A stretch of 64,000 bases of DNA, from NCBI RefSeq assembly GCF_018143015.1, contig NC_054746.1, positions 29,973,129 to 30,037,128 of the forward strand, written 5' to 3'. The DNA is from Lytechinus variegatus (lineage: Eukaryota; Echinodermata; Echinoidea; Temnopleuroida; Toxopneustidae). The position numbers were made by a program, and so were the translations under genes. Shown in pieces: positions 17,793-53,100 of the stretch (positions within the stretch are counted from its first letter, which is position 1; each line of letters starts with the position of its first letter). The notes beneath the pieces were generated by a model, which saw nothing but the letters and a program-made list of their open reading frames with translations, did no database searches and was not told the origin of the DNA.

Positions 17793-18095
17793 TCAGAATG
17801 AAGAATGATCTGGGTGACTTACTGAAGGGTTATTATTGTCTCTTGGTGAATCAGTTTGATCTGATGGGTGCATAACTGAAAGGGTAACATTGTCTGTTGG
17901 TGGATCAGATTGATCTGATGGGTGACTTACTGAAGGGTTATTATTGTCTGTTGGTGAATCAGTTTGATCTGATGGGTGTATAACTGAAAGGGTAACATTG
18001 TCTGTTGGTGGATCAGATTGATCTGATGGGTGAATTACTGAAAGGTTAACATTGTCTGTTGGTGGATCACTTTGATCCGATGGGTGCATTACTGA
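17705..18095. repeat. 54-base coding minisatellite, partly beyond the stop codon
   Basis: Units of 54 bases built around GATCTGATGGGTGCATAACT and AACATTGTCTGTTGGTGGAT. About five units are coding on the minus strand and about two decayed units follow the stop. Two unit subtypes alternate (SDPPTDNV and TDSPTDNN). Confidence 0.85.
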
Positions 18096-18364
18096 ATCGT
18101 AGCTCGGCGGTAGCTCCGTCGGAGGTGATGGGAAGGAGACATAGCGAGGTGGACTCGAAGTGACTACAGATCCTGCTCCATTATTCGCAGACGAAGAGTA
18201 GACGGCGTTGTCAGCAATAGTCCGCCTGTCGGATCCTTTTGATCTTTGTCGTTGATAGCAACAGATGATCACACACACCAACGGAACCAAGAAAGCGACG
18301 GCTATCAAAAATATTTCCCATTGTGTCAGTATAGGTGACGAAGAATCAGGTATCACTGGGGCTT
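17793..18364 (-). CDS. Transmembrane and cytoplasmic-tail exon with 18-residue tandem repeats
   Basis: Acceptor CTGCAG, then stalk, a helix of about 20 residues, YQRQRSKGSDRR, two PPxY motifs, and five copies of HPSDQSDPPTDNVTLSVI and its variant with NNNPSVS, ending HPDHSSF-stop. The 54-base repeat continues past the stop to about 17705. A GA microsatellite (18387-18408) lies in the upstream intron. Confidence 0.85.
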
Positions 18365-27300: not shown

Positions 27301-30300
27301 ACATCCCCATAAATAGTTGTGATTTTGACCGTCCGACCCCTGTAGCTTATCCCCTTCTTCCCTGATGCATTATTTCAGGTAGTTACGATACCATCAGATC
27401 AATATTTGACCTCATCCCCTTGTTCTCTTATCGTACCGTCAGTTTTGGTATGATGGAGTGTCTAAACTTAGCTGCTTAGCGGACATCAAGTTTAAGAAAT
27501 ATTATTAGGCTAAAATTCGTCCAAAAATATTCAGTCCTCATTCCAAAAAGAGTAGGCAACCTTTCATTTTAATTTTCAGGGTTCAACTGTAAGTGTTTTG
27601 TATAATTTGAATTACAAGACCAATATTAAAACAAATCTTGATCTCCTTTTTAAAATACAATACTCACCTCGGCATTGTCGTTGGTCGTGTAATCGTCACA
27701 AATCGATCCCCAAAGACCATCATGAAGAATCTCTACTCGACCGTAATCTCTGTTGATCATACCTTTCTCGTTTACCAGTCGGACAGGATGGTTCGCCACC
27801 GAGACTAAGTAAGTAAGAAATAATATTATATAGGGCCTACTGTATAAATGTGATTAAAGATACTACAATGTGAATTGTAAACAGAATCAGCACTGTTTTG
27901 TCTGAATCATGCCTTATAAATAGCAAGTTGGTATGCCGTTATGTTTCGCATGCGCATAAAGGGCATCTGGTTCAGTGGGTTTGTCCTGCCGCGCCTTGAA
28001 AGGTTCCCTACTAAATAGTAAATTTCTTGATAGGTCAGAATGTAACATCCATTCTGAATCTGCCTAAACAGATGTAATAACGTGACATGCATGCCTTACG
28101 ATTTTCAGACACCCATCATGCTTACCATATGGTGCACATAAAACTTCCAGTTCGTCATCACGTGTATTCAATGATTCATTGCCGGTGAATGTTATGCTGC
28201 AATCGGTTATCTTGGAATCAAAGAAGCCGCAGTATAAGCCATCGATGACGATCCTACCCGATCCACTCTCAAATAGGTTGTACGAGTAGTATTCATTAGG
28301 TGATCCTTCATAGCCAAGCTGTCGACATATCGTCTCTCGGACGTTAGTGAAGAAATAATCGTCCGTGATAGAGCTCCACTCATTATTATAGTATACATCT
28401 ACCCTGCCTTGTTCTGTGTAGTCACTTCCCATCAGGCGAAGATCAAACTCTGTTTCGAATTCAATAAAATGGAATTAGTCATGTCGTCAATTTCGAGCCC
28501 ACGTCCTTCAGATTGAAAGACGAAAGTCATAACCATCAACAGCAAACATATAAACAATAACAATATCAACGTCAAAACGGTAACATCTTTTTTTTGTTTT
28601 AAATATATAACCCTCGTCTCTCAAAATTAAATCAAATCTTGACCTTCTTACCTTTTGGAGGTCCACATCTGACCTGGGCGATGTTTGTCGGTTCGCATTC
28701 AAAGTCAGAGGACAAGGAAACTTGGCATTCACCGAGATGCTTTTCAGTTCCGTTGCACTGATAGTCATAATAAGATATCAATCCAGCTCCAGATGATGGA
28801 CCAAGTGAAACTGGTCTCTCATTGCGTCCATACTGGTAACCGAGCTGTCGACAGACAACTTCTGCTTCAGCTAGACTCCAATCAGGGTCACATATAAAAC
28901 CAGGTGCAGATCCAAAACGGTATTCAACAACACCTTCGTAGCTGGTAGATCCACTCAGAAGTCTTACAAAGTTGGCTGGATCTATCATGAAGGAAAAGTG
29001 AAAAGTTCTTAAAGACAAACACCTATATCTCTTCAAAGAATATGGATTTTGTGTATGAATTCAATTCAATTCAATTCAAGGTTTATTAAAAACATGAGTC
29101 GCAGCCAAATGGCTGAATTGTTCATGTATACAAAGTAAAAACAATAAAAGGACTCATTACATATTTCAAACATTAAAAAACAGTAAACTTTGTAAAAAAC
29201 TGACATGAGAAATATGAGTATAAAAAATATTGAATAGTGAAATGTTCAAAAATAAAATTGAACTTTGATCAATAAAAGTCAACAAGTCCTACTGAACCTC
29301 TATTTCTGTATTATTTCAGTATGATCTGTCTTAGCAATGTTCAAAATGAATTGAAATTTTAATGACAATCTTTTGGACCCTACATTTTACGAAAATGTTA
29401 AGATTCATACGGTGATTAAAGCAAAAAGACATAAATATTCCAGATGGAACAGCGTGAAATACAAACAGGTTGGTCATAGCATCGGATTTCTCCAGTATGT
29501 AGGAAGTTGGGTTTAAATGGTTTTTAATACTTGTTGTAAAGAGGATTCTAGTGATTGTTCATACTCTAGAACTAGTACACCATTTTGGACACATTTCCCC
29601 TATACATTCTGATTTTGATTAATTTCTTACTTTGACATTTCATAATATTGTACTCATTTATATTTCTATGTCGCCTGATCTGAAGTGATAAAAGCAACGA
29701 TGGTGTTTGCTTCAATAATATGCCAACTACTTACCAATACAAATGACGCCTGCTGTAAGTTGATCTGGGTGTGGATATGGAGAACAGCTTTGAACCTTAG
29801 CCCACCCTAAAGAATCACAATCCCGAACATAAGACTCGTTTCCTGAACAGAATACCTCGTCCAGTAAGACTCGTCCATCCCCTCCAGCTACTGATGTGAT
29901 TTCCAACGCTCCTAGTGGATACCCAAGTTCTCGACATGCGATATGAGCAGCATCCATATTCCAAGAACAGATTGTACCCCATGATCCTCCGTGGTAAACT
30001 TCAACTCGACCTTCATTGGGATACTCTCCGTTTTGCAGACGAATCACTGCAAAGCGATTAAATAATGTTGAAGGAGAATTTGATCAGTCTAGAGAAGTCC
30101 ATTCACGGGGATCAATATTGCCATAAATTTGTTTGGTTTATATATTCGTAAGTGTCGTTCAAACGAACTGGACACCCAGTATTCATGGTATTAGGTTAAT
30201 CGGAAAGTGAAAACATTCTGTGATATTATGCTTCTTTATTGGGACGTTGGTCTTGATACCACTTGATAATACAATATTATTGAAGATAATGTAATGATTT

Positions 30301-32289
30301 TGTTTTAATCGGTTTACAGGCCTTTCCGAGAACCTCAGCTTCTGCTGGAAGCTATAACAGGTCGGTAGATTCAAGGTTTAAAAGCATAAAGCTTAGAAAT
30401 CGGTGAAAGAAATCGTATGTGGATTGTATTTATATATTAGGTACACCTGAACAGGTTTGGAAGCTGTTCCTGATTAATTCCATACCACTTGTCATAAAGA
30501 AATGTAACATGAGATGAATAAGCAATATTGCCAATTTTATGGAAGGAAAACTGTTATAATGTCCTCAAGAAGGTAAAGACTAATCCCAACCATGACACTT
30601 CAGTCAACCAAGATAAAGGTAAAAATGTCATAAGCAATGACGGTGTCGATTAACTCAAACTGTCCAAATGCAAAGGGTACAATTGAAATAACTTTGTGCT
30701 AGATTTATTTTGTTCCTGTTTGTGGTAACTCCCTTGGGAACTCGGCGGGACAGCATTTTGCTGGTTAACGCCAAGCTGGTATATAACCAATTACCACTGA
30801 AACATTTCACGTCTAGGTTAATCAGTCACAGTGGCTGACGTTATAGACGACAGATATCACTCTCGGGCCTTTTTATCAAAGTGGAGACAATGACAGAGTT
30901 GGGATTCGAACTCACAACCTTGCGATTATAAAGGTCCAATACTAACCACTGGACCACACGACCCTTATTCGAACCCAGAGTGTGTTTATTCTGCTTTCAT
31001 TTCACTTACGTTTTGTGTCACATCTCAGGCCCGCATCTTCTTCGTGTGAACAGTCGTGAGTCCCAACTTCTTTTGTCACCGGACAGTCTATTAAATGTCT
31101 CTCGCCTCCTCTACACTCGAGTCCATCTAGAAGAATTGGACCTGAACCAGGACCAAAGAGTGGTTGCAAATGTGTATAATTTTCATTGACGATGGCTTCT
31201 ATAGCATCCGGGTATCCAAGTTGTCTACAGGCCACTCCTGCATCAGTCCTGTCCCATGCATCATCACATATTGTTCCCCAAACTCCTGATTCACCAAGAA
31301 TCTCAACACGACCCTCACCGGGTACAGATCCATTGGAAAGGCGAAGACTTCCTGTATAACAGAATAAAAGTACATACTCTACATGCACTCTAAAATAGGG
31401 GAAATAATGTTAAATCAACATTTGAAAGGTTGGATGAGTGACCCGTCCAAATGTTCATATCAAACTCCGGGTTTTCCAACCTTGCATAACGCTAAATCAA
31501 ACACTAAAGTGTTGGGTCGAACCATATCAAGTGTAAGTGTAATGTCAAAGTAACATTTTAGAAAAGTTTGTCACTCATCCAACCTTTATTGTTGATTTAA
31601 CATTTCTTTGTTTAGATCGAGTGTGTAATATTTAAACTACTAGTCTTAATTGTATTAACGTGTTGCATTGAAGATGAAACCCGTTAAAACTCTATTAACA
31701 GATAGAGTGAAAGTGCACACTTTAAGTATTGGATTGAGGGTGTGAACATATTTTGAAATTGAAATTGTCATCAAATTTGAGAGAGACAGTAAAAAAAAGC
31801 TCAAGCTGTTTTTATTGAATATGGACGCGACCTAATCTTGTATTGTACGGTTTGCTTTTTACGGTATTACATTTAGGCCTATAAAATTTTTCCAGACTTA
31901 GTACATGCATGACATTTTAAATCTGAAAGGCAACTAGCTGGAGTATTTCTTACCATATGCTGTACACCTAACACCTGCACCTTTTCCAGAGTGAGGGCAT
32001 GTAGAGCCTACATCAGTGTAGTTACACTGAAGTAGATGATCCTCAAACCCAGTGCAAGACAGTTCACCATAAGCTGGTTGACTCAGCGACTCATTCCGAA
32101 CGTCGCCGAAGTATCCCGAGAGCAATGCTAGATCGGCACCGGTGTAGTTGAAGTGTTTGCAGATTACAGTGGCTTCTTCAAAACCCCAAAGACTGTCACA
32201 GAATGAAGCCGGGGCAGAGCCGGAGACATTCGCTTCAACTCGACCTTCAGAGTCGTACATACCATCCTCGAGAAGATAGGTCGGTGTAC
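17793..32289 (-). CDS. Multi-SRCR type I membrane receptor, 5' (signal peptide) exon not found
   Basis: Cell-surface scavenger-receptor-like protein. Eight exons join in perfect phase: 31954-32289, 31010-31351, 29735-30046, 28652-28981, 28126-28449, 27668-27804, 19130-19367, 17793-18364, giving about 863 residues. Five SRCR domains are single phase-1 exons. The sixth is split between two exons joined at DNAE-LICSQLG. Each domain shows the GRVEV-x-W-x-x-C, C-RQLGY and AG-V-x-C core and, except domain 5, six cysteines (group A pattern). After domain 6 come a transmembrane helix near residues 691-712 (IFLIAVAFLVPLVCVIICC), a basic stop-transfer, and a 150-residue cytoplasmic tail with PPRY and PPSY motifs (745-748, 759-762; WW-domain/NEDD4-type ligands) and five 18-residue repeats. 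No signal peptide was found up to about 38 kb. The ligand cannot be inferred; an immune role is known only for the family. Confidence 0.88.
19130..19367 (-). CDS. SRCR domain 6, second half
   Basis: Starts LICSQLGHDTTYASSLRP after a CACAG acceptor and continues to RHAGVQCIENLPFVTTS. The four cysteines here plus one in the first half, together with DWC, make six. Ends in phase 1 and joins the transmembrane exon to give the membrane-proximal stalk SEAPVIPDSSSP. Confidence 0.85.
19441..19571. repeat. CAGGGGCCGCGG MITE, copy 1 (131 bp)
   Basis: Starts CAGGGGCCGCGGACGGTTTT and ends GCTTCTGCTGCCCCTG. It shares its interior (TTTTCAAAG, G-run, TGCAAAAAATCACAATC, TTTTTGTACACGGTTTTG) with the two copies inside the large palindrome at 39848-39980 and 41960-42086. 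Confidence 0.75.
22012..23189 (+). CDS. Candidate small membrane protein, last two exons (22012-22164, 23139-23189)
   Basis: Not recognised. Exon 22012-22164 follows a strong pyrimidine tract and CAG and encodes three copies of VEFEEKEK-like repeats, then RYRGLPIWFKMMIIIACI, a transmembrane helix, to ILIQ before a GTATAA donor. The next acceptor (TTTTTTTCAATCTGCAG) opens DWCNRCFHSRNPTIQH and a stop in the same phase. A possible 5' exon ends at 20348 before GTGAGTACGT; joining it leaves two frames open across the junction, so the start is unresolved. The gene would be nested antisense in the SRCR intron. It could be a chance combination of splice-like signals. Confidence 0.35.
23345..24375. 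repeat. Repeat element with internal ~110-base units
   Basis: Between a G-run (23375-23388) and a C-run (24359-24370), degenerate units of GAAAGGGGCACAGAACA / GGGGGCACTTT recur about four times. A separate MITE is inserted at 23577-23868. No coding capacity seen. Confidence 0.45.
23577..23868. mobile_element. hAT-like MITE with perfect 8-bp target duplication
   Basis: Element runs from CATTGGCGGCGGAAGG to CCACCGCCTATG and is bordered on both sides by GGCAAGAG (23569-23576 and 23869-23876). The interior is a tandem of AATTTAGGGGGG-type units. An 8-bp duplication is the hAT hallmark. Confidence 0.7.
25277..25405. repeat. GGGGCCCGTTTCAT MITE
   Basis: CTGGGGCCCGTTTCAT at the left mirrors ATGAAACGGACGCCAG at the right; about 129 bases, non-coding. 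The termini resemble the 37173-37321 element. Confidence 0.65.
27668..27804 (-). CDS. SRCR domain 6, first half
   Basis: 45 codons, phase 1 to 0: VRLVNEKGMINRDYGRVEIL then HDGLWGSICDDYTTNDNAE, ending at a GTGAGT donor. The second half of the domain lies 8.3 kb away at 19130-19367, and the join gives NDNAELICSQLGHD, matching the family consensus exactly. Confidence 0.85.
28126..28449 (-). CDS. SRCR domain 5 exon lacking one disulfide pair
   Basis: 108 residues: GRVDVYYNNEWSSITDDYFF, ICRQLGYEG, GLYCGFFDSKITDC, ELEVLC. Only four of the six group A cysteines remain. Those absent are the first (SSITDD where the others have TICDD) and the fifth (region NESLNTRDDE), which pair with each other in the known fold. 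The reading frame is intact with normal splice sites. Confidence 0.87.
28652..28981 (-). CDS. SRCR domain 4 exon
   Basis: 110 residues. Six cysteines; CDPDWSLAEAEVVCRQLGYQ replaces the more usual CDDGW-x-x-x-DA-VVC. A central stretch of about 130 bases is nearly identical to the pseudogene exon at 49792-50103, far closer than any other domain pair (see findings). Confidence 0.88.
29059..29330 (-). mobile_element. LINE 3' tail (CR1/L2 type)
   Basis: Read on the minus strand it ends TTTAATAAACCTTGAATTGA followed by a (GAATT)n microsatellite, with TTCAGCCATTTGGCTGCGAC upstream, a typical 3' end of a CR1/L2-like LINE. It sits in the intron between SRCR exons 28981 and 29735. A similar AATTC tail occurs near 8133-8155. 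Confidence 0.5.
29735..30046 (-). CDS. SRCR domain 3 exon
   Basis: 104 residues with GRVEVYHGGSWGTIC, IACRELGYPLG and LLDEVFCSG, six cysteines, and an atypical end (SPYPHPDQLTAGVIC) in place of the usual HxEDAGVxC. About half of the residues match the pseudogene exon at 49156-49461. Confidence 0.88.
30700..30965 (-). mobile_element. tRNA-derived SINE
   Basis: The minus strand starts with an A box (TGGTCCAGTGGTTAGTA) and a B box (GGTTGTGAGTTCGAATCCC) about 30 bases apart, followed by a non-tRNA body and an A-rich end (AAAATAAATC). It lies in the intron between SRCR domains 2 and 3. Confidence 0.7.
31010..31351 (-). CDS. SRCR domain 2 exon
   Basis: 114 residues, the most canonical domain in the gene: GRVEILGESGVWGTICDDAW, ACRQLGYPD, FGPGSGPILLDGLECRG, DCSHEEDAGLRC. 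Six cysteines. It ends in phase 1 before GTAAGTG. No counterpart is seen in the paralogous pseudogene to the right. Confidence 0.9.
31386..31624. repeat. MITE in SRCR intron
   Basis: GTTAAATCAACATTTGAAAG and GGTTGGATGAGTGAC on the left are mirrored by GTCACTCATCCAACC and TTGTTGATTTAAC on the right; outer CACTCTAAA / TTTAGATCGAGTG. About 239 bases. Confidence 0.65.
31954..32289 (-). CDS. SRCR domain 1 exon
   Basis: 112 residues, phase 1 to 1, from TPTYLLEDG to VRCTAYG, with six cysteines (SFC, VIC, LSC, LQC, STC, VRC). It lacks the usual acidic DD after the first cysteine (FCDSLWGF). Two N-glycosylation sequons (NVSG, NESL) lie in the first two thirds. This is the first domain exon found; its acceptor is phase 1, so at least one 5' exon is missing. 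The best match within the window is the pseudoexon at 47100-47398. Confidence 0.88.
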
Positions 32290-33662
32290 CTGTAGCAAAC
32301 ATTTCGAAAACTATATGAATACAAACCATTTTGATATAACAAAAATAATTATCACTCGACTTGTGAGTATATAATTTGAACATAAAATTCGAAGTGATGG
32401 CCGCGGGTGCCAGAAGAACTGATAATTTCCATCAAGCATGTCAAGTGGTATTGCCTGGAACTAGCGCCATGTGAACATCCTGAATTGATTTCTAGATTTA
32501 TTCGAACCATATTAAAGAACAAACATGTATGTTTAAACAAAATGTAGGAATGAAATACATTTTAAGCATCGGGCTGTACGCATATAGCAACACAAGCTTT
32601 TGTGAAAAGTGCATAGTACACAGCGCATGATTTGCAATGAACATTTCTTCTGGGTCGAGGGATTTGTGTGCAGAAGTTTATTTTTCATTTCTAGATTCAT
32701 TTTTGACAATGCAGCCAAGTGTGGATGTAGGAAGAATTTGGAATAAATACAATTACTATCCACGTCTGTACTTGACAAGTCAACGGGATGAATGATTTCA
32801 TCTTTTTATTATGCTCTACCCACAACATGTAAAATATTTGGTATTTGTTTGCCTTTGCAGGATAGTAATAATGTACTGCTTAACTCTATCAGAATTCGAT
32901 AGGACCTAATTATGATTCTCATTCTAACATTGTTCATTTACACGTAATAAGATTAATTTTGACCAAGTATATGCCCATTCTTATAGCACTCAGTTTCGAG
33001 TAAAACATAAGCCGATATAATGTCAGATCTGAGATGGTATCCGGGAAGGATATTTCTACACCACATTACACCATGGTTCATTTACTGTTTGACAGTTTAG
33101 AAGCCTCGAGAATTACCTTTGGAAAAATAATCCTCTTCAGCGATGATATTTATAAAGGAAGAAACAATGAGACTTTGTGCCAATTTTTGTGTCAAATCTC
33201 ATCGCAACTTGGCTATAGGGTGTCAACTCAGGCAGTATGAAGCACATAGTGCACCCACTTTTTACTGACAATCATATTTTCACATATTGATATTATCATT
33301 ATTTTACATGTAATCGCACACATCTTCAATTGCTAATTATTTTTACGAACAATAATCCAGTGGTCTCCTCGTGACTAAGCTCTATATTTGGAAAATGAAT
33401 TTGTTTTCATGAATGCATTGCATACGTGACATTCAAAGCATATAGCACAAATTAAACCATATTCTGGTCCAACTGATACTTTGGACTTTGCTGATGAAAA
33501 TAATCACATCTTATTTACTAAGCACGTACGTCAGTTGTGAATGAAAAGCTTTCATTACATAGGCATTTTATAGCAAGTTTACTTTCAACTTTAGATTTAT
33601 GCTGATATTCATACTTTAAATATCTTTCAAATTGTTATGAAATCGGTTATTATTGTTGGAGA

Positions 33663-34369: not shown

Positions 34370-34790
34370 GTTGGAAATATCTTCACGCTACAAGCACTGC
34401 TGTGTCATGTCTATATTTGGTACCTTCATTTCCACAAGAGACTGTATACTCAATTTTCAAGAAATGAAAGATCTGAAAAAGTGCCTTATTTAAAACAAAG
34501 TGCAACTAATTCAGAATTTACAACTGTAAGTATTCGATGAACTTCGCATAAACGTCAGCCAAAATCTGAGCATCCGAACGGGGTATATAGTTATGGAGAA
34601 ACTTTGTGTCGTGAGAGGAAAGATCACTCCACCACATGTAGGACATATAAAGCTTTTGTAAATTATAAATCGTGAATTCTATAGGTAAATTAAATTCGTT
34701 CAATATTTTATTCTATTGAGCACATCTGTATAAAATCATGGAACCTGTATACACGATATACTTGATTTTATCACAATTGTTGGAAGTATA

Positions 34791-35943
34791 CACTCAGCAA
34801 AAAAAGTTCTTGGACACTTATGAAAGTTAAAATTTTCCATATAGATATTTGATTAAAGGCAAATTATTGTATGTCAACATGACCAGGCAATATTCCCCTT
34901 CTGGTATGACATGACATTTTTATGTGAACAGTCATGCATGGGTGGTTAAATGCTTTAAACAATAGCAATGTCAGTAAAAGAAAATTGCAAGAAATGGATC
35001 AGTCAGTGCATGGCTGGTTACAGGCATTTAACAATATGTCAGTAAAAGAAAATTGCTAGCAATCGATCAGTCATTCTTTCAGTTGTGAAAATTTGTTTGG
35101 CATAAATATCCATTAAACGATAAAAGCAAACTTAAAGTCAAATACCACTCTAATAGTGAAGAGAAAGTTATCCACCTTGGATGCATCACTATTCCACTGG
35201 AATTTTAAGTCAAAGTTAGTCGATGAACAAAATGTCAAATTTCAGTATCTTGGCATAAGCAAAACAAAATTATCGTTATCCTACTATCTACTGCAGGGGT
35301 GGTGGCCCTAAGTCGACCAATCCTAGGGCGATCTCTAATTTCATTAGTAGTCAAAGACCGCTGATTCAAATTTGAAATTGTTGTTGGGGAAACTTGGAAA
35401 TATCGAGCCATGCTCTTGGTTGGAAAGCTTCATCTTGAAAGTGAGTGTCCAAATGATCCATCTCATTAAGCAGCTCATGATGCATCCCTAAGCATTCAAT
35501 TCAATTGATAAACACATGTTGAAATTGCTGAATGTACACTTTAAAAAATGAAGTGCTAATTCAGCTCTTAAAGAGCGTGTATAGTGACTGCACTTCGGAG
35601 TGCTGATTTGTCTAGTTCAAATTTGAACGAGAAAAATCAGCACTCCGAAGTGCAGTCACTATACACGCTCTTTAAGATCTGAATTAGCACTTCATTTTTT
35701 AGAGTGTATGCCTACAGGATGGCAATGATCATTAGCATTTGAATGGTCCATTTCTTGCAATTTTTTTTTACTGATATTGCTATTGTTTTAAGCATTTAAC
35801 CACTCACGCATGACTGTTCACATGAAAATATCATGTCATACTGGAAGAGGATTATTGTCTGGTTATGTTGACATACGATAATTTAATATCTATATGGAAT
35901 ATTTTAACTTTATTAAGTGTCCAAGAACTTTTTTTGCTGAGTG
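34791..35943 (-). mobile_element. Tc1-like DNA transposon relic, 1.15 kb
   Basis: Inverted repeats of about 205 bases begin CACTCAGCAAAAAAAGTTCT and are flanked by TA on both sides, the Tc1/mariner target. A minus-strand fragment at about 35310-35430 reads RYFQVSPTTIS and then RDRPRIGRLRATTP, which corresponds to the helix-turn-helix and basic GRPR segment of Tc1 transposases. Only this N-terminal scrap survives, interrupted by frameshifts. A hairpin MITE is inserted at 35536-35707. Confidence 0.75.
35536..35707. repeat. Near-perfect hairpin MITE, 172 bp, nested in the Tc1 relic
   Basis: Two arms of about 80 bases (ACACTTTAAAAAATGAAGTG ... and its mirror) surround a loop of about 10 bases. 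They share AGAGCGTGTATAGTGACTGC and GCACTTCGGAGTGCTGATTT. Very few mismatches, so a young insertion or one kept paired. Confidence 0.8.
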
Positions 35944-37172
35944 TATATAGTATTTTGTGAGTGTATATGTATGGAAGAATTAAGGATACCGTGCATGTGT
36001 GTGAGTGAAAATAGGGATGCGAAGCCATAGAGATATATACTACTAATAATAATAATTAGTAATAGTATACATCTCCATGTGTGAAGCGTGGTATTAGAAT
36101 GTGAGGCTTTTACTTTCAAATCGTGTCAACATGGTCAAATTGTGTGTGTAGACTCAGTTTTAATGTACAGGTTGATCGTTAAAACCAATACCAGTGCCCG
36201 ACCATGGTCAATGACTGTTCCAATTCAGGCAGTCATATTTGATTTGCAATACATAAAATTAAATATATATATATATGTATATATATCTGTGTGTGTGTGT
36301 GTGTATCTTGAAATAAGTATACATTCTAGTGAGATGACCAGAATCCTGATTATAATCAACTGAGTGTGTCATTAAAGCTATTTATTCCTATACTGACCTG
36401 TATATTGCAACCCTCTCTCCTCCCCCTCTCTCGCCCTCACTATCCATTTTTTTTTAATTCTCTTCTGCCTTTCTTCCTTCCTTTTTCTCTCTTTGCCTAT
36501 GATTCTCTGTCCCCTTCTCTCTCCCTTTCTTCATTAATTCATCTTCTCATTTAAATACATCTTTTGTTCAGAACCCCCAAGCAGATTAAAATTGGCCAAA
36601 ACATATCTAATTCCAATTTGACAAATGTATTACATCAAAATTGCATCAGGCATAATCAGAGTCGATACATGATAAACGTGCTTGCATCTCATTATTATGC
36701 TATACGATCTTACCTAGTGCGAATGCCCCGATGTGAAGAGCCAATGTCAGAACATGACATGCATGTACGTATATTATAGGCCTATTGATCATATCCATCG
36801 TAAACTGATCCATATATTATGACACAGTCTGATGGTGGTTTCCAAGTGGTGGTATTACCTCAAACTGATAGGGTACACTCAAAAATTTTAAATTTTGATG
36901 ATGAAAAATTGTACAAAATACTCTATCCTCGCGCGGGAAGAATGACGATGCATGATTTTAGTCATTCTATTACGGCAGTACTTCAGTTGAACAGTGCTAC
37001 CTTCAAATAACACAATGTGTACATTAGCGAATGCAAGGCATATTATATGATTTCATATTTGCAAAGTCGGTCATGTGGTACGGTAGGTCGCACATCTACA
37101 AAAGCTTAACGGGACATAAACAAACACTCTGGTCCGACACGCCCGGGCAGAGGAAAGAGAGAAATAGGTAGA

Positions 37173-37745: not shown

Positions 37746-38204
37746 CTGTGGCTTCTCCATTCATTACTTTTGTCATTCGCTTCTCGATGAGCCCAACTTG
37801 CCTGAATTTTTTTTCCTGCAGTCTGTAGTGCTATAAAGAAAGTTAAATCGCGATGGCTATATACATTTTTATCATTAATCTGTCCTGGGTGTCTTCGTTC
37901 GTCTTTTCCGTTTCGTTTCTATGACTCCCATGCTTTCTCCCGTACTCTCTTCAACTTATCAGGGAAGTCTTACGTAATCGGGGAAGTTCCCGAGTTGCGC
38001 GACCTCAGAGACCACGTCGAGCTGAGGACATAATTATTTACTTCCTCGTCATAATAAGAGTCGCGTGCGACCCTGACTGACCTTAGCGAAGGTCAGACCT
38101 TGTCAGATTCTTATCAATAATCCGGTCAAAGGATTGTTTGTTCAGTGGAGCGAGAGTTTCACGTGTATGGCACGCATATAGGGAATCAATTAAATATATA
38201 TTTC

Positions 38205-38920
38205 ACTTAAAAAATATATCTTTCTCTTCCACTAAACCATTTCACTTAAAGAAATTTATATTTCACTTTCAAAAATATATTCCACTTTATCAAAAAAATA
38301 TATTTCACTTTAAAAAATATGTTTCACTTTAAAAAAAAAAGTATTTCACTTTCCCCAAAAAATATGTTTCACTTTTCAAAAAAATATATTTCACTTTTCA
38401 AAAAAAAGATATTTCACTGTTCAAAGAAATATATTTCACTCTTCTAAAAGATATATTTCACTTTTCAAAAAGAAAAAATTTCACTTTTCTAAAAAAAATA
38501 TATTTCACTTTTCCCAAAAAATATATTTCACTTTCCAAAAAAATATATTTCACTTTCCAAAGAAATATATTTCACTCTTCAAAGAAATATATTTCACTCT
38601 TCTACAAGATATATTTCACTTTCCAAAAAAATGTATTTCACTTTTCCAAAAAAATATATTTCACTTTTGAAAAAAAAATATTTCACTTTTCTAAAAAAAA
38701 TATATTTCACTTTTCCCAAAAAATATATTTCACTTTCCAAAAAAGTATATTTCACTTACCAAAGAAATATATTTCTCTCTTCAAAGAAATATATTTCACT
38801 CTTCTACAAGATATATTTCACTTTCCAAAAAAATATATTTCACTTTTCCAAAAAAATATATTTCACTTTAGAAAAAAAAATGTTTCACTTTTCAAAAAAA
38901 AAATCATTTCACTTGATACA
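38205..38920. repeat. ~20-base tandem repeats, left palindrome arm
   Basis: About 30 degenerate units of ATATTTCACTTTTCAAAAAA. Long lysine/phenylalanine-rich frames here are by-products of the repeat. The mirrored array is at about 42960-43500. Confidence 0.9.
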
Positions 38921-39139
38921 TTTTAATTTTGAGAGAAAACAAATCCTTTCACTTTTGTTGGATAACACATGCGGCTGCCGTATTAGACCGTAACTATCCT
39001 CACGGAAATATCCATTCCTCTCGCTACGAAAAACATTTCACTCGTGTTGCAAATTCATTTCACTCAATTGCAAAAAAATACGTTCCTCTTTTTTCTCGGC
39101 CTGTAGGCGGCGCGCACCATTGTTGGCGGGACGAGGAGA

Positions 39140-39529
39140 AGGTACATGATATATCTATCTATCTATCTCTCTCTCTCTCTGCCTAATATATATCTATCTG
39201 TTTAAATATGTCTATCCTTCTATCTATCTATCTATCTATCTAATATCTATTTATTTCGTTTAATATGTCTGTATATCTGCGTATTTATCATTCAATCTTT
39301 ATATCTATCTATCTATCTATTTATCTACCTATCTATCTTATGTCTATCTGTTCAGAATACATATGTCTATCCGTATGTCTACTTTTTATCTTTCAATCTA
39401 ATAACTATTGATCTGTCTAAATAGTTATGTCTGTTTATTTGTTTGTTTAACTATTTAATATCTATCTATCAAATTTGTTTAATATGTTATTCTATCTATC
39501 TACCTATCAATAAATATATCGATCTATTT

Positions 39530-39576
<47 letters not shown>

Positions 39577-39847
39577 ATCTATCTATCTTTCTATCTATCT
39601 ATTTATCTATCTGTCTGTTTATCTGTGTATGTACATGTACCTATGTATCTACCTGTCTCTGAATCTATGTGTATATCAAATATGATATCATTATCACCGC
39701 TGGGAATCATCGTATTTTTTTCATCAATCATTATCAGTATCAGCCTTCTCATCGTATTTTTTTATCGTCAATGTCTATCTGTCCGATACCTATCTATCTG
39801 TTTATATCTATCTACCTATCCATCTGTCTATCTATCTATCTATTAAT
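39140..39847. repeat. TATC microsatellite block, left arm
   Basis: Long interrupted runs of TATC/TCTA with CTCTCT stretches (39165-39182, 39530-39548), mirrored at about 42087-42725 in the right arm. Encoded YLSIYLSI frames are not genes. Confidence 0.9.
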
Positions 39848-39980
39848 CAGGGGCCGCGGAACGGTTTTCAAAGCGGGGGGGGGGGGCTGACCATGCAAAA
39901 AATCACAATCATACGGTCATTTTTACGGTTTTGGAAAAAAAGTAAAGGGGGCTGCCCCCCCCCAGCATCCGCGGCCCCTG
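39848..39980. repeat. CAGGGGCCGCGG MITE, copy 2 (left arm)
   Basis: 133 bases from CAGGGGCCGCGGAACGG to CATCCGCGGCCCCTG, with TTAAT-type flanks. Same family as 19441-19571; mirror copy at 41960-42086. Confidence 0.8.
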
Positions 39981-41959
39981 TTAATATATATCTATCTATC
40001 TTCTATTATCTATCCACCTATCATTTATCTCTCCATCAATCTATCTATTTATCTATCTTTCTTATATGTATCTGTTTGAATATGTATGTCTGTTTGTCTA
40101 TTTATCTTTCATACTTATATCCACTCATTTGTTTAAATAATTATGTTTGTTTATCTCTGCATCTACGACAGACCACCTAATTCGTCCGTACGACGAAATA
40201 AAAACCAATTTCACTTGTTACATTTTAAATCTGAGATCAAACAAATCCTTTCACTTTTGTTGGATAACACATACGGCTGCCGTATAGACCGTGAGTAAAT
40301 TTCGTTCTTCACGTAAATATCCATTCCTCTCGCTACGAAAAACATTTCACTCATGTTGCAAATTCATTTCACTCAATTGCAAAAAATACGTTCCTCTTTT
40401 TTCTCGGCCTGTAGGCGGCGCACACCATTGTTGGTGGGACGAGGACAATGCACCACGAGGTGGGCCCATAAACACAAATTGTAAAGTTTGAATTTATCGC
40501 TGATTATGCACAATAGCCAGGGCAATCAGCTGTTGCATTCGGCCCTACGATCAATCACTAACCTTAGCACGGTCTGGCTATACGTTTTGTAGGCATGAGG
40601 CATGAATACTTCATACATACACTATCTACGGAGCTGAATGGTCAAGGTATAAGTGTTGAAATTTCCCTTTTCTCCCTTCCGTCTGTCTTTTCCTTCATTG
40701 ACATACGATGGTCATAATGATTGATGAAATGAAGCTTACAAAAAGCTACATTTCACCGGTCAACTCGCTTGTACCTGCACTGCAAAACCAAATTCTCTCC
40801 ATTTTGTATGAGACATGAATGGGGGGTCACCATCCTTAGAACAGACATAAAAAGTGAGTATACGGGACTGAAGTTGGGTAATGACATCATGGACATTCTC
40901 GGCTAACACCACAGAGATGTATACTAATTGCGCGTTATAAAAGTATCTCTATGGCTAACACCAACCTTTGGGCTGAGCGATGACGTCATCATCCATCTTC
41001 AGTCCCGAATACTCACTTTTTATGTCTGTTCTAAAGATGGTGACCCCCCCCCCCCCCTCATCACGTCTCGGACAAAATGGAGAGAATTTGGTTTTGCAGT
41101 GCAGGTACAAGTGAGTTGACCAGTGAAATGTAGCTTTTTGTAAGCTTCATTTCATCAATCATTATGACCATCGTATGTCAATGAAGTAAAAGACAGACAG
41201 AATGGAGAAAAGGGAAATTTCAACACTTATACCTTGACCATTCAGCTCCGTAGATAGTGTATGTAAAAAGCATTCATGCCTCATGCCTACAAAACGTTAT
41301 AGCCAGACCGGCCGTGCTAAGGTTAGCGATTGATCGTAGGGCCGAATGCAACAGCTGATTGCCCTGGCAGCTGTGTATAATCAGCGATAAATTAAAACTT
41401 TACGATTTGTGCTTATGGGCCCACCACGTGGTGCATTGTCCTCGTCCCACCAACAATGGTGTGCGCCGCCTACAGGCCGAGAAAAAAGAGGAACGTATTT
41501 TTTGCAATTGAGTGAAATGAATTTGCAACATGAGTGAAATGTTTTTCGTAGCGAGAGGAATGGGGATATTTACGTGAAGAGCGAAATTTACTTACGGTCT
41601 AATACTGCAGCCGTATGGGATATTTACGTGAAGAACGAAATTTACTCACGGTCTTTACGGCAGCCGTATGTGTTATCCAACAAAAGTGAAAGGATTTGTT
41701 TGATCTCAGATTTAAAATGTAACAAGTGAAATTGGTTTTTATTTCGTCGTACGGACGAATTAGGTGGTCTGTCGTAGATGCAGAGATAAACAAACATAAT
41801 TATTTAAACAAATGAGTGGATATAAGTATGAAAGATAAATAGACAAACAGACATACATATTCAAACAGATACATATAAGAAAGATAGATAAATAGATAGA
41901 TTGATGGAGAGATAAATGATAGGTGGATAGATAATAGAAGATAGATAGATATATATTAA

Positions 41960-42086
41960 CAGGGGCCGCGGAAGCTGGGGGCAGCCCCCTTTACTTTTTT
42001 CCAAAACCGTAAAAATGACCGTATGATTGTGATTTTTTGCATGGTCAGCCCCCCCCCCCGCTTTGAAAACCGTTCCGCGGCCCCTG
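41960..42086. repeat. CAGGGGCCGCGG MITE, copy 3 (right arm)
   Basis: Reverse-oriented counterpart of 39848-39980 at the matching position of the other arm, slightly shorter in its C-run. Its presence in both arms means it was inserted before the arms were duplicated. Confidence 0.8.
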
Positions 42087-42959
42087 ATTAATAGATAGAT
42101 AGATAGACAGATGGATAGGTAGATAGATATAAACAGATAGATAGGTATCGGACAGACAGACATTGACGATAAAAAAATACGATGAGGAGGCTGATACTGA
42201 TAATGATTGATGAAAAAAATACGATGATTCCCAGCGGTGATAATGATATCATATTTGATATACATAGATTCAGAGACAGGTATACATAGGTACATACACA
42301 GATAGACAGACAGATAGATAAATAGATAGATAGATAGAAAGATAGAGAGAGAGAGAGAGAGAAAATAGATCGATATATTTATTGATAGGTAGATAGATAG
42401 AATAACATATTAAACAAATTTGATAGATAGATATTAAATAGTTAAACAAACAAATAAACAGACATAACTATTTAGACAGATCAATAGTTATAAGATTGAA
42501 AGATAAAAAGTAGACATACGGATAGACATATGTATTCTGAACAGATAGACATAAGATAGATAGGTAGATAAATAGATAGATAGATAGATATAAAGATTGA
42601 ATGATAAATACACAGATATACAGACATATTAAACGAAATAAATAGATATTAGATAGATAGATAGAAGGATAGACATATTTAAACAGATAGATATATATTA
42701 GGCAGAGAGATAGATAGATATATCATGTACCTTCTCCTCGTCCCGCCAACAATGGTGCGCGCCGCCTACAGGCCGAGAAAAAAGAGGAACGTATTTTTTT
42801 GCAATTGAGTGAAATGAATTTGCAACACGAGTGAAATGTTTTTCGTAGCGAGAGGAATGGATATTTCCGTGAGGATAGTTACGGTCTAATACGGCAGCCG
42901 CATGTGTTATCCAACAAAAGAGAAAGGATTTTTCTCTCAAAATTAAAATGTATCAAGTG

Positions 42960-43500
42960 AAATGACTTTTTTTTTTGAAAAGTGAAACATTTTTTTTTCA
43001 AAAGTGAAATATATTTTTTTGGAAAAGTGAAATATATTTTTTTGGAAAGTGAAATATATCTTGTAGAAGAGTGAAATATATTTCTTTGAAGAGTGAAATA
43101 TATTTCTTTGGAAAGTGAAATATATTTTTTTGAAAAGTGAAATATATTTTTTTGAAAAGTGAAATATATTTTTTGAAAAGTGAAATATATTTTTTTGAAA
43201 AGTGAAATATATTTTTTGGAAAAGTGAAATATATTTTTTTGAAAAGTGAAATATATTTTTTGAAAAGTGAAATATATTTTTTTTGAAAAGTGAAATATAT
43301 TTTTTTTGATGAGTGAAATATATTTTTTTTTGAAAAGTGAAATATATTTTTTGAAAAGTGAAATATATTTTTTTGAAAAGTGAAATATACTTTTTTTGAA
43401 AAGTGAAATATATATTTTTTTAATATCAAAAGTGGAATACAATTTTTAAAAGTGAAATGGTTTAGTGGAAGAGAAACATAATTTTTTCAAGTGAAATATA
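42960..43500. repeat. ~20-base tandem repeats, right palindrome arm
   Basis: About 25 units of the reverse complement, TTTTTTGAAAAGTGAAATAT. Shorter and more regular than the left-arm array, so the copy number has changed since the arms separated. Confidence 0.9.
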
Positions 43501-43537
43501 TATTTAATTGTTTCCCTATGAGCGTGCCATACACGTG

Positions 43538-44112
43538 CCTCGTATATCGTTATTACTTTTTTCTGTGTTCTCTGACTGACAGTAGGCCAATGCCTTTCGG
43601 GCTTTTAAAATCGGAAGGGTAAATGTATGTTTTATATTTTAACTAAGCCAATTAGGGGCCCTTTTCACAACATTATAAGCGTAGACCTGTATTTGTAAAA
43701 CTTTCTCTTCTTTTATTTTAAATGATTTATTATTTATATGTAGCTAAGATAAAATGGTTTCCCATCAGATTCTGAACGAATGTGATGTGTTTCCATCATG
43801 TACGCCTATTTGCACTATACATACATTTCTATATAGTTCCATGCAAGTCGAATGAGGTCAGGTGAGTAAACCGATGGAACCCCGGAATGTCCTGGTTTTG
43901 ACATACTAAACGCATGTATTAGTAGCTATATAGACCTATATTGCAGGCCTATGTATCATGTGTGTAATACAAAGAAGAGAGTCATCACTCTCTGCTTCAA
44001 CACTGGATATTTATAATCGACCATACAACATGTATACAGCTGCTTTCAATCATAAATTTTCATCGAAATGGCTATCATTTATCTTATGCAATATTTCATA
44101 TCGGGAACCATA
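43538..44112. other. Unassigned spacer right of the palindrome
   Basis: AT-rich non-coding sequence. I see no gene, repeat or structure I can support. Confidence 0.5.
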
Positions 44113-48009: not shown

Positions 48010-48755
48010 GGAACGACGTTTCTAAGTTCTGCAACTTAAGTTTACTGTTTCAGTGCTAATAAATTTCTTAGTGTGCCATCATCATATGTATGTAAAAGTG
48101 AAATCATTGGAAAGTATGATTATTCCTCTTTACGATCATGTGTCATTTGTAATGCTAGTGTTATCATGAAATACACAGACATGATAAATATGCAGCAATG
48201 TAAAAAATGAAATGTTGCAAAATTCGTTGCCATGTCATGTTTGAGTTCTGCAACTCAAACTGCAAGTTTGAGTGCTAATAAATTTCTTAATGTGCCATCA
48301 TCATGTGTAAAAGTGATATCTTTAGAAAGCATGATTATTCTTCTTTACAATCATGTGTCATTTGTAATGCTAGTGTTATCATGAAATACACAGACATGAT
48401 AATACGCAGCAATGTTAGACATGAAATGTTGCAAAATGCGTCGTTTGCAATAGCGAATTTCCAATTGTTTCGAGGATGGACCGAGTGCATTCACTGTCGC
48501 CTGCATGGTAGAAATTCTATAGAAATGGAGACTCTTGTTAGAAATCAATGCATTTTGCAACATTTCACTTCTGACTTTTCTCGATGTTCAGGGTGATTGC
48601 ATATTCCATGATTACATAATCACAGCAAATGGCATGTCATTGTAAAGAAGAATAATTCAGCTTTCCAATGATACCAGTTTCATCTTTTATACTTCATTAA
48701 CCCAAAAGATATCATCCTCTAAAACTGAGTTGCAAAACTTTTTGAGGGGTTTATG
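48010..48755. repeat. Inverted-repeat element with a tandemly duplicated left arm
   Basis: Two direct copies of about 190 bases (48055-48243, 48247-48440) share AGTGCTAATAAATTTCTTA and TGTAATGCTAGTGTTATCAT. A mirrored partial copy follows at 48600-48720 (TTGTAAAGAAGAATAATTCA and CCAATGATACC). Ends GAGTTCTGCAACTCAAAC and CTGAGTTGCAAAACTT are inverted. Lies between pseudogene exons 1 and 2. Confidence 0.55.
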
Positions 48756-49020: not shown

Positions 49021-49155
49021 ACTTAGAGTACTAGTATATGCAATATTAGTAGCTGCGCAATATCCCGGGCGTTATGGAACATTATTATTATCACTATTGT
49101 AATTATTACTAGGTTATTAACGATTTCTTTTATTTCCTGAATTGTTGAATTGCAG

Positions 49156-49461
49156 TTATCCAAATGGTGGATGGTGATTATGACAATAAGGGTCGTGTTG
49201 AGGTCTACTACGGGGGTAGACGGGTTAGAATATGTCTTACCAGCTGGACCATTGAAGATGCCCATGTAGCATGTAAAGAACTTGGATTCCCTCTCAAGGC
49301 AACGGTGCATCTATTTGAGGGAGGAGATGGACCGTTTCTCCTGGACGATATGCGATGTCTAGGATATGAGGGGCGTTTGGTTGATTGTGAATCCCCAGGC
49401 TGGGCTAATAATCTTAATTGTGATGCAGACTTGAACCATGGTGCAGGTATTATGTGCAATG
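49156..49461 (+). pseudogene. Intact SRCR exon within the broken paralogue
   Basis: 102 codons, phase 1 to 1: MVDGDYDNKGRVEVYYGG, HVACKELGFPL, FLLDDMRCLGYEG, GAGIMC. Six cysteines, but RRVRICLTSW replaces the usual WGTICDDxW. About half of the residues match domain 3 (29735-30046). Confidence 0.75.
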
Positions 49462-50103
49462 GTGAGTCAACTGAATTTTGTGAGGGGACTAGCTTAGATG
49501 AAGCCAAGAAAGTACAGAGCCATCACTATACATTTGGGTAGTCCTTTATACTCCTTCCGAAAAGTAGCACTGCTGTGATTTTATCTTGACATAGTTATGC
49601 GAGGTTTTTATGTCGCTATTGGTTTTCATTGACGGTGATCTTAACAAGTCAGGGTTCTTACTGTTCAATTTATTTCAATAATCTTCTAATCCCGAAATGT
49701 ATTTCTCTGATTTTGGCATTCAATTGTCTGAATACTTTGTCATGGAATTACATGTAACTCTTTATTCTTGTTTGGATATAGATCATATGGCTACTGTAAG
49801 ACTCCTCAGTGGATCTGCCAGTTTTGAAGATGTTGTTGAATACCGTTTTTGACGTACACCTGGTTTTATATGTGACCCTGATTGGAGTCTAGCTGAAGCA
49901 GAAGTTGTCTGTCGGCAGCTCGGTTACCAGTATGGACAAAATGAGAGACCAGTTTCACTTGGCCCAATATCTGGGACGATCTTTTATCATGACTATCAGT
50001 GTGATAGAACTGAAGGACAATCATGAGATCGTCTTTTTACAGAACGACCAAGACCAGTGCAACCCTGATCATATAGCACAAGTTTTATGCGGACCACCGA
50101 TAG

Positions 50104-53100
50104 GTAAGATTCAGTAACATCTACAAGAAAATAACCAAGTCAGATAGACAGTCCCATCTCCTATACTGTATATTGGTCTACTTAAAGTCTTTTTCCAGCC
50201 CCATGTCTTCAGCGTAATTTTGTTATGTGTGATAGCTTCTTTGTGACGTAATCAGTTATTTTTTCTCTGTACATGATTTTAATAAAAAAACACTATTTGA
50301 GCAAAAATTTATGATTCTATTTACAAAATTTATGAAATGAACATTCACTAGTACATGTATAGTGACAAATCCCTGTTCGGGTGGATCACTTTGTAATGCA
50401 TCTTCCCTTAATATTGCACCGTTCACTTGACAATAGATTTTGATCTTCGGATGACCGGAAGTGAATACACGGAGTAAGGTCGTCTTGAGGTCTTCCTTAC
50501 GGGCCAGTGAGGATACGTGGCTGCTGCATACTATTCTATTTATGAACACGATACAGTCTGTCGCCATCTTGAATACGCAGGAGGAATTTACCAATACAGC
50601 TATATTTTGCTCGTTCTTCTCGCCCTATTTTGATAAGATGATATTTCATGTGATAGAAGTGATATGAAGATAACCGACTGCTACTGAAACTGAGTGGACT
50701 TTATACTACCCCGCAAAGAAGATGATGGAAGTCTATACAATCTGCTTCCCATATGGTAAAGATTCAGTGTTATTAAGTAACTGAGTTAGAGGTAACCGCA
50801 TGGACCTGGTGATGCCGAAAAAAATGTCTCCATCGGGAATCGAACCCAGGCACCCAGCTTTGAACACCGGCACCTTAACCACTAGAGCATAGAGAAAGGT
50901 TAGTGGCTAGGGCGACCCCAATCCGATTGACCGTCATATTTTCGACACTAACAATTAAATTTCCCCCATGCCTCAGCTCAGTCAGCTGGATCCAAGCTAT
51001 ACAGTACATGACTTGTATAGGTCACTTAATAAAAATGTGTTACAAACAGAGCAGAAAAGATATTCTGTGAAATTTAAAATCAAAACATGAAGCCCCTTGC
51101 TTTTAAATTGACTTGTGAAAAATTACTGATTCAGGGACAAAAGCATATACAGTGATGAGCCACTATAAACTTAAAATGTAAAATTCACTTTTCATCCAGG
51201 TTATCAGTGAGAGAGGTTATCAGTGAGAGAGTTGAAGGTCAAATACACTCCATATGATAAATAAGGACATTGAAAAATTGAACGAAGAAACAGAAAATAA
51301 AATATCTCCTCTCTTCCTCTTTTATTCCAACTAGATCAAAAATGAATGAACTTGTGAAAACAGAATAAAGCCCCTATTATTCATAAATATGAATCACAAC
51401 TTAATAAACAATTCATGTTCGAGAATAGAATAAATAACTTAGATAATATATCATCTTCACAATATGAGAATAAGCATGCCCTGCATGGTCATAGACAAAA
51501 TGTATAGCCTGTAGAAATAACTCCAGTAAATTGATGCTCAACAGAGCTGCAGCTAATTTAAGCAATATTTTTTCAGTGTTTGAGGTACACAGGAAGACAA
51601 ACAGTTCACCTTAGGTTGAAAACATGCACTTTACGCTTCCAGTCTCGTTAAATTACTTAAAGTTGTCTTGACAAACTCATGTCATAATGATGTTATATTG
51701 TGGCCGTGGGTAATGTGGTACATGTATCACATGATTTCATGGATTTATGAGCACAACTATTAAAGTTGCACTTGCTCTTTATAAAATAAACTTTAGTTAT
51801 GGTCGTGAATCAATTTGAATATCAGTCTCAGTCTGACTTTGAAAGGATGTTCATCATAATGCACCTAAGAAATGGGGTTTGTTGTAAAGCAATTGAATCG
51901 CCAAAACGATAATTCTTCCAAAGGTCACATGTACTGCAGACAGATATTGTGTGTTACGCTGCTAGTATTTATATTTTGAATGTGAGGGCGTTTGAAGAAC
52001 AATCTGTTGCAATGAATGGACAAGCTTGTACTGATTTTCTTCCTAAACATCATGGTAAGGATTTGAGTTTCCATCACCCCCCAACTTTAATCTCTAGAGA
52101 ATTTGATTTGTATGCAATTTGTTGCATCAAAGGAACAAAAAATGATTTTCCTACCATTGTGACATTTTCTGTTGCCTCACGACAGGGACGGTGCCAAAGG
52201 AGGAAGGGGTTCAATCACCCCCTCCCTTTGACTTCTGTTAGTGAAGCATTTAAAAGAAAAAGAGTTTCAAATGAGCAGCCTAGGTTGACTTCCTCTGCTT
52301 TTCAATTGAGAACAAAACTATTTCATCCTCCCCCACCCATCTCCAATAAACATATCCTGATGCTGCTCCTGCCTCATGATACCCTATTGACCTGAGTTGT
52401 AGAACACAGAACTTTACACAGCTTTGCTGTTAAGCTTCGTTGTACTGTCCATGTCTTAAAAACCCTGATTACATGAAATTAATTTTCGCAGTTCATGCTA
52501 AAATCATCATACCTAGCATTGTACATTAATATTGGATATCTGTTCTCTGTGTCTTTGACTTATTCTGGAATGATATCAAAATAAGGTGTCTGGTGTGCAT
52601 CAAGTACCTTCAATTTGAACCATCCCTGTTAAAACTATCACACACAAGTTGCAATAGATATTAATAATTTGAAGTACTCAGTACAAGGTAATTTCATAAA
52701 ATGATCAACTTTTTTGTACGTCCAACCCCTATTTTCTCAAGTCTTACTTCACTTTATAAACTGACCAAGTCATGGTTCTTTGAGAACATTACAGGCTGTC
52801 AAAAGAACAACAAATCAGAGACAGAAAAAATCATGAAGGTCCCACACATAGGGGGTCGGACGTAATATTTTATGGAATTGCCCTACACAAAACTTGTTCA
52901 TGTATTCTAGATACGATTCTTGGTATTGTAATGATTTCAGTACATCAGACTTACATAATTTGTAGATTAAACAAAGTTATGTCCCTGTAAAGACCGATTG
53001 TGGTTGGAGTATTTTCTTGCTCATAACTGGGAATATACTATTTTACTAGAAATGTTAACATACATGTAATTTCTGTAAAATATACATGACAGTTTAAAAA

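What the first reader, a model, noticed from the sequence alone, without database searches (positions are those of the whole stretch)
38160..43537. A 5.4 kb layered palindrome built from four repeat types
Both arms carry the same ordered set: ~20-base tandem repeats, a unique cassette, TATC microsatellite, a MITE, TATC again, the cassette again, and a unique inner segment around a 90-base spacer. It would fold into a giant hairpin. Tandem-repeat outer parts and unique inner parts match the architecture of foldback/TU elements, but the size and the embedded microsatellite and MITE go beyond what I know of those. Arms differ by indels and unit number, which argues against a simple mirrored assembly error.
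Basis: partly seen in the sequence, partly recalled or inferred. Interest (0 to 1): 0.7.

Follow-up and report, generated by a model that had tools for sequence, protein, structure and literature searches.

The report
Foldback-like DNA element with mirrored insertions
A 5.4-kb stretch of animal DNA is two mirror-image arms that could fold into one giant hairpin; a smaller mobile element and a simple repeat sit at the same place in both arms, apparently because one arm was recently copied over the other, a process already described for similar transposons.

Summary
The palindrome is real: 38160-43537 is an imperfect inverted repeat with an ~87-base spacer and unrelated flanks. Arm order is TIR edge, 22-base tandem array, cassette A, TATC tract, MITE, TATC tract, cassette B, inner segment. 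Arm divergence is not uniform. A two-changepoint fit gives 6.7% (29/436) outside ~38777, 0.6% (10/1610) to ~40458, and 6.2% (27/433) in the inner segment; the inner step does not depend on the tandem array (9/1480 vs 27/434, p=2.4e-11). The MITE lies in both arms at the same place with the same TTAAT flanks. The two copies differ at 1 of 127 sites, but at 11 of 122 and 13 of 123 from another MITE copy in the window, so one insertion was copied across. Best reading: a non-autonomous foldback/TU-like element whose arms captured foreign DNA and were partly re-symmetrised by inter-arm gene conversion. The same outcome is published for Galileo TIRs (PMC4168063). No transposase was seen in the ORFs searched and no clear 8-9 bp target duplication. 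Other genomic copies could not be searched: ten requests did not complete. Mobility is inferred, not shown.

The parts
38160..38247 (+). left terminal inverted repeat edge (CACGTGTATGGCACGC...)
   Evidence: 95.2% to the right end (4 subs of 83 over 38163-38247)
38248..38905 (+). left outer domain: 22-base tandem array with core word TTTCACT
   Evidence: (38257-38914, period 22, 29.5 copies)
38906..39148 (+). cassette A, left
   Evidence: 1 sub of 240 to right cassette A; 6-7% from cassette B
39149..39847 (+). TATC-rich tract 1, left
   Evidence: 6 subs of 637 to the right arm
39848..39980 (+). MITE, left arm, CAGGGGCCGCGG...CCGCGGCCCCTG ends, flanked on both sides by TTAAT
   Evidence: 1 sub of 127 to the right arm's copy
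39981..40207 (+). TATC-rich tract 2 and linker, left
   Evidence: 0 subs of 227, no gaps
40208..40456 (+). cassette B, left
   Evidence: 1 sub of 249, one 56-base indel
40457..40891 (+). inner unique segment, left
   Evidence: 27 subs of 434 to the right arm
40892..40978 (.). central spacer (loop)
   Evidence: 40870-41000 folds no better than shuffles (z -1.22)
40979..41427 (-). inner unique segment, right
41428..41732 (-). cassette B, right; holds a 54-base tandem pair (41563-41670) that is single in the left arm
41733..41959 (-). TATC-rich tract 2 and linker, right
41960..42086 (-). MITE, right arm, flanked on both sides by TTAAT
42087..42723 (-). TATC-rich tract 1, right
42724..42963 (-). 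cassette A, right
42964..43450 (-). right outer domain: 22-base tandem array
   Evidence: (42970-43420, period 22, 20.3 copies)
43451..43537 (-). right terminal inverted repeat edge

Best explanation
It is one copy of a non-autonomous foldback-like DNA transposon (works like TU/FB/Galileo elements). The original arms held TIR edge, 22-base array, one cassette and the inner segment. A TATC tract carrying a MITE became lodged between two copies of the cassette in one arm. The tract from the inner end of the array to cassette B (about 1.7 kb) was then copied into the other arm by gene conversion, for instance when a break in one arm was repaired from the other, so the insertion became mirrored. 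Shown: the anatomy, the single origin of the two MITE copies, the low-divergence tract. Inferred: that the whole moves as a transposon, that the copying was inter-arm conversion rather than repair of both arms from a third copy, the order of the earlier steps, and that the repeated TTTCACT word is a protein (transposase) binding site.
For: Arm alignment and segment counts; changepoints at 38777 and 40458 with rates 6.7/0.6/6.2%, lnL gain 35.97 against a maximum of 12.71 in 200 permutations on a 20-site grid and 11.15 in 200 more on a 2-site grid; cassette B arm-to-arm 1/249 vs inner 27/434, p=6.6e-5; cassette A-left vs B-left 16/238, like the inner arms (p=0.87); MITE pair 1/127 against 11/122 and 13/123 to the third copy with TTAAT on both sides in both arms; TTTCACT 37 forward/0 reverse in the left arm, 0/30 in the right arm, 30 on both strands in 58.6 kb outside. 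Published precedent for TE insertions transferred from one TIR to the other (PMC4168063, section 10) and for a proposed copying of one TIR by repair from another (PMC3573991, passages).
Against: No clear 8-9 bp target-site duplication: at the outer ends, with boundaries 38130-38175 and 43522-43569, the full scan gave 5 candidates; only the self-palindromic CACGTG has the TIRs in register (10 of 12), and an 8-base pair with one mismatch (TTCACGTG/TACACGTG) overlaps it with the TIRs out of register. No transposase domain in the 20 ORFs searched of 94; the ORFs touching the inner segment, at most 67 aa, were listed but not searched. No other copy of TIR edge, cassette or inner segment in the window. 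The outer changepoint lies in a tandem array whose alignment is partly arbitrary. The TATC, MITE and cassette B indels show that the tract was not perfectly equalised or has changed since.
Confidence: 0.65

Rival explanations
1. A one-off inverted duplication (foldback priming at a break or palindromic segmental duplication) of a locus with a tandem array, TATC tract and MITE, later partly homogenised; not a transposon.
For: No clear target-site duplication; no second copy of its unique parts in 64 kb; foldback priming at breaks is a proposed source of inverted duplications (PMC10622511, seen only as title and start of abstract).
Against: The homology ends abruptly at a short CACGTGTATGGCACGC terminus just outside the array, and the array/inner-domain order is that of foldback elements; both are suggestive only.
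Confidence: 0.2
2. The mid tract was copied into both arms from a third family member elsewhere in the genome, so that the similarity of the arms is shared descent from a donor, not inter-arm conversion.
For: Cassettes A and B differ by 6-7%, about what the inner arms differ by, as expected if different family members supplied them; ectopic recombination and conversion among copies is proposed for Galileo (PMC3573991, passage).
Against: Needs two conversions from one donor; inter-arm copying needs one (parsimony only, no test).
Confidence: 0.1
3. Assembly artefact: a mirrored read or mis-joined haplotypes.
For: Palindromes are a known failure of assembly (general knowledge); reads are not available here.
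Against: 27 substitutions in 434 aligned inner bases, 17 of them transitions, large structured indels, an 87-base spacer and unrelated flanks.
Confidence: 0.05

Closest known systems
Galileo (P superfamily, Drosophila), long-TIR foldback-like copies
   Same: Long TIRs with internal tandem repeats that can differ in number between the two arms; TIR growth by tandem expansion and recruitment of neighbouring sequence (PMC3573991, passages), and insertion of another TE that ends up in both TIRs (PMC4168063, section 10).
   Different: No transposase seen here; no 7-bp target duplication; 22-base unit; a microsatellite-rich tract and a duplicated cassette inside the arms; a different host. No sequence comparison with Galileo was made.
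Tetris (Drosophila virilis foldback)
   Same: TIR with outer flanking domain, tandem-repeat outer domain, inner domain, and a middle domain without apparent coding capacity (PMC4079207, passages).
   Different: About 220-bp units; TSDs of 8-10 bp found there (section 17), no clear one here.
TU elements of Strongylocentrotus purpuratus
   Same: Modular long inverted repeats with tandem outer and unique inner domains (recalled; the 1985 paper is not held; I did not look up the 1983 paper, which is cited in PMC4079207).
   Different: TU unit length (15) and 8-bp TSD are recalled and were not compared by sequence; here the unit is 22 and no clear TSD of that size is seen.
Tm1 (Mutator/Foldback, Meloidogyne)
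   Same: Composite TIRs with variable numbers of a short repeated motif (PMC3169594, passages).
   Different: About 14-bp motif, most often 9-bp TSD; some copies encode a putative transposase.

Membership tests
Foldback (FB/TU-type) transposons | Long inverted repeats making up most of the element | tested here: met
Foldback (FB/TU-type) transposons | Short tandem repeats in the outer part of both arms, variable in number | tested here: met
Foldback (FB/TU-type) transposons | Unique inner domain and non-coding middle | tested here: met
   ORFs touching 40457-41427 are at most 67 aa, not searched against families
Foldback (FB/TU-type) transposons | Target-site duplication of about 8-10 bp | tested here: inconclusive
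   of 5 candidates at the outer ends none is 8-12 bases with the TIRs in register; CACGTG (6) or ACGT (4) fit but are self-palindromic and may just be TIR. The long AT-rich matches lie inside the arms; that call printed only its 40 best rows.
Foldback (FB/TU-type) transposons | Several dispersed copies / empty sites | tested here: inconclusive
   none elsewhere in the window; 0 matches of two exact patterns in viral contigs, which says little for an animal element; the window's own genome search did not complete
Mutator or P superfamily (owners of described foldback-like elements) | Transposase-bearing relative or superfamily TSD | tested here: inconclusive
MITE inside the arms | Inverted termini, target duplication, further copies | tested here: met
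   CAGGGGCCGCGG/CCGCGGCCCCTG ends, TTAAT on both sides in both arms, further copy at 19441-19571, which has no clear duplication (by eye)

The most novel reading that the evidence does not exclude
The element is a self-symmetrising capture device: its arms repeatedly convert each other, so anything that lands in one arm (here a microsatellite tract with a MITE) is mirrored, becomes part of the inverted repeat and is spread on transposition. The ten-fold drop in divergence inside one tract, with A/B cassettes about as diverged as the arms, would be one frozen cycle, and copies across the genome would form a series of such cycles.
Probability: 0.2. Interest if true: 0.55.

Novelty: new member of a known kind. 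Interest (0 to 1): 0.35.

Why it matters
Long-TIR elements are proposed to grow and diversify by recombination between their arms. Here one copy records such an event with visible edges and an internal marker (a MITE), in an animal window with SRCR genes. If copies exist across this genome, the locus would give relative dates for arm turnover and show how foldback elements pick up foreign DNA.

Tried and rejected
Independent MITE insertion in each arm: rejected, same place, same flanks, 1/127 differences against 9-11% to another copy. Uniform arm divergence: rejected. Assembly mirror: unlikely. Fresh slippage as the source of the 54-base pair in the right cassette B: the inner unit differs from left cassette B at 4 sites plus one gap, the outer unit at 2, so loss of one unit from the left arm is more likely than a new duplication on the right; not proven. 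Coding function of the inner segment: no ORF of more than 67 aa touches 40457-41427. Special fold around the central spacer: 22 of 200 shuffles fold at least as well. RNA families: the one hit in the window at gathering score is a weak tRNA match at 50825-50896 (29.8 bits, threshold 29, E 0.036), outside the element. Protein families: besides SRCR, one sub-threshold Exo_endo_phos match (21.5 bits, cut-off 24.5), the weak SRCR_2 rows that accompany SRCR and one sub-threshold Viral_Beta_CD match at 36085-36363 (18 bits, cut-off 23.4, E 0.0038), taken as chance. Superfamily from the termini: not decidable. Exact patterns in viral contigs from the cassette, the array and the MITE: 0 hits each (the tool warns that records near the window's genome may be left out). 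The conservation of the TTTCACT core within array units was not used, because the units had been picked with that word; only its counts and orientation were. One of the 30 right-arm matches lies in the inner segment, at 41122, outside the repeats. The three 192-base array blocks (two left, one right) differ from each other at 7-8 sites, so they do not tell whether the left block doubling is older than the copying.

Full report
What is there. The stretch 38160-43537 is an imperfect palindrome. From the left end inwards: a TIR edge beginning CACGTGTATGGCACGC, a 22-base tandem array, cassette A, a TATC-rich tract, a MITE, more TATC and a linker, cassette B, and a 435-base inner segment; then an 87-base spacer and the mirror image. 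Outside 38160 and 43537 the flanks do not align convincingly. Folded as one DNA strand (38163-43534) it reaches -2703.7 kcal/mol, 5.5 to 5.7 times the two shuffles run and 4.4 times an equal stretch of neighbouring DNA, and 2442 of 2512 pairs cross the centre.

Host. SRCR domains were found in 6 of the 10 ORFs of the first family scan and one further ORF resembles human angel homolog 2 in the PDB set (E 1.6e-15; the name is the listing's, the species is recalled), so this is animal DNA. An echinoderm or other deuterostome is my guess from the SRCR exons and is not tested.

Arm divergence is patchy. Substitutions between arms by segment: TIR edge 4/83, array 26/482, cassette A 1/240, TATC-1 6/637, MITE 1/127, TATC-2 and linker 0/227, cassette B 1/249, inner 27/434. 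Cassette A to cassette B together give 9/1480 against 27/434 in the inner segment (Fisher p=2.4e-11). A two-changepoint fit over the whole arm puts the steps at 38777 and 40458 with 29/436, 10/1610 and 27/433 (lnL gain 35.97; maximum of 200 permutations 12.71 on a 20-site grid, and of 200 others 11.15 on a 2-site grid). The outer step lies in the tandem array, where the alignment is partly arbitrary; the inner one does not depend on that. It lies somewhere between the neighbouring differences at 40285 and 40458, so it may or may not coincide with the cassette B/inner junction.

The MITE as a marker. The two arm copies differ at 1 of 127 aligned sites. A further copy at 19441-19571 differs from them at 11 of 122 and 13 of 123. 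Both arm copies have TTAAT on either side at the same place in the TATC tract. So one insertion was copied, not two made.

Cassettes. A and B differ by 6.3-7.2% in all four cross comparisons, while A-left/A-right and B-left/B-right differ at 1 site each, indels apart. The A-left/B-left difference equals that of the inner arms within error (16/238 vs 27/434, p=0.87). One reading is that A and B descend from cassettes that parted when the arms did, and were put together around the TATC tract before the copying; two family members as donors would fit as well. The right cassette B has a 54-base tandem pair, single in the left arm; loss on the left is the likelier cause.

Repeated word. TTTCACT occurs 37 times forward and never reversed in the left arm, 30 times reversed and never forward in the right arm (one of them in the inner segment), and 30 times on both strands in the remaining 58.6 kb. 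It is in the outer array and edge and in all four cassettes (4, 4, 4 and 3 times). In Galileo, tandem TIR repeats are said to hold secondary transposase-binding sites (PMC3573991, passage; PMC4079207, passage); the same role here is inference.

How it likely works. A non-autonomous foldback-like transposon that lengthened its arms by picking up foreign DNA, after which repair of one arm from the other mirrored the insertion. For Galileo in D. [quoted passage not shown] For D. mojavensis, repair of one TIR with another as template is proposed (PMC3573991, passages). That paper also reports twelve chimeric copies flanked by non-matching 7-bp sequences, so a missing TSD does not exclude a transposon.

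What is not shown. At the outer ends the full scan gave 5 candidate duplications; only the self-palindromic CACGTG has the TIRs in register. No transposase domain was found in the 20 of 94 ORFs searched. No further copy of the unique parts lies in the window. The window's own genome could not be searched. Viral-contig scans with two element patterns and one MITE pattern gave 0, which means little for an animal element. Eight literature searches by architecture words listed no paper whose title or abstract start describes this element; their lists were capped at 8-15 rows where more matched, and the 1985 TU paper is not held.

Verdict. New member of a known kind with an unusually readable conversion tract.

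Noticed in passing
34787-35947: A second, smaller foldback-like element: ~220-base inverted ends at 86% (ACACTCAGCAAAAAAAGTTC...), a 68-base tandem duplication reported in the left arm (34929-35074), and a nested 174-base palindrome at 35535-35708 (95%).
   Followed up: partly
19441-19571: Further copy of the MITE found in the palindrome arms; 9-11% different, no clear target duplication by eye.
   Followed up: yes
28064-32431 (-) and 49149-49541 (+): ORFs with SRCR domains on both sides of the palindrome and in opposite orientation; 28743-28968 (inside one of them) and 49795-50014 are an inverted repeat at 86%.
   Followed up: no
17725-18096: 54/108-base tandem repeat overlapping a 220-aa open frame on the minus strand (17793-18455), no Pfam match at E 0.01.
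   Followed up: no
48025-48680: 215-base tandem duplication (1.8 copies) overlapping an imperfect ~370-base palindrome (68%).
   Followed up: no
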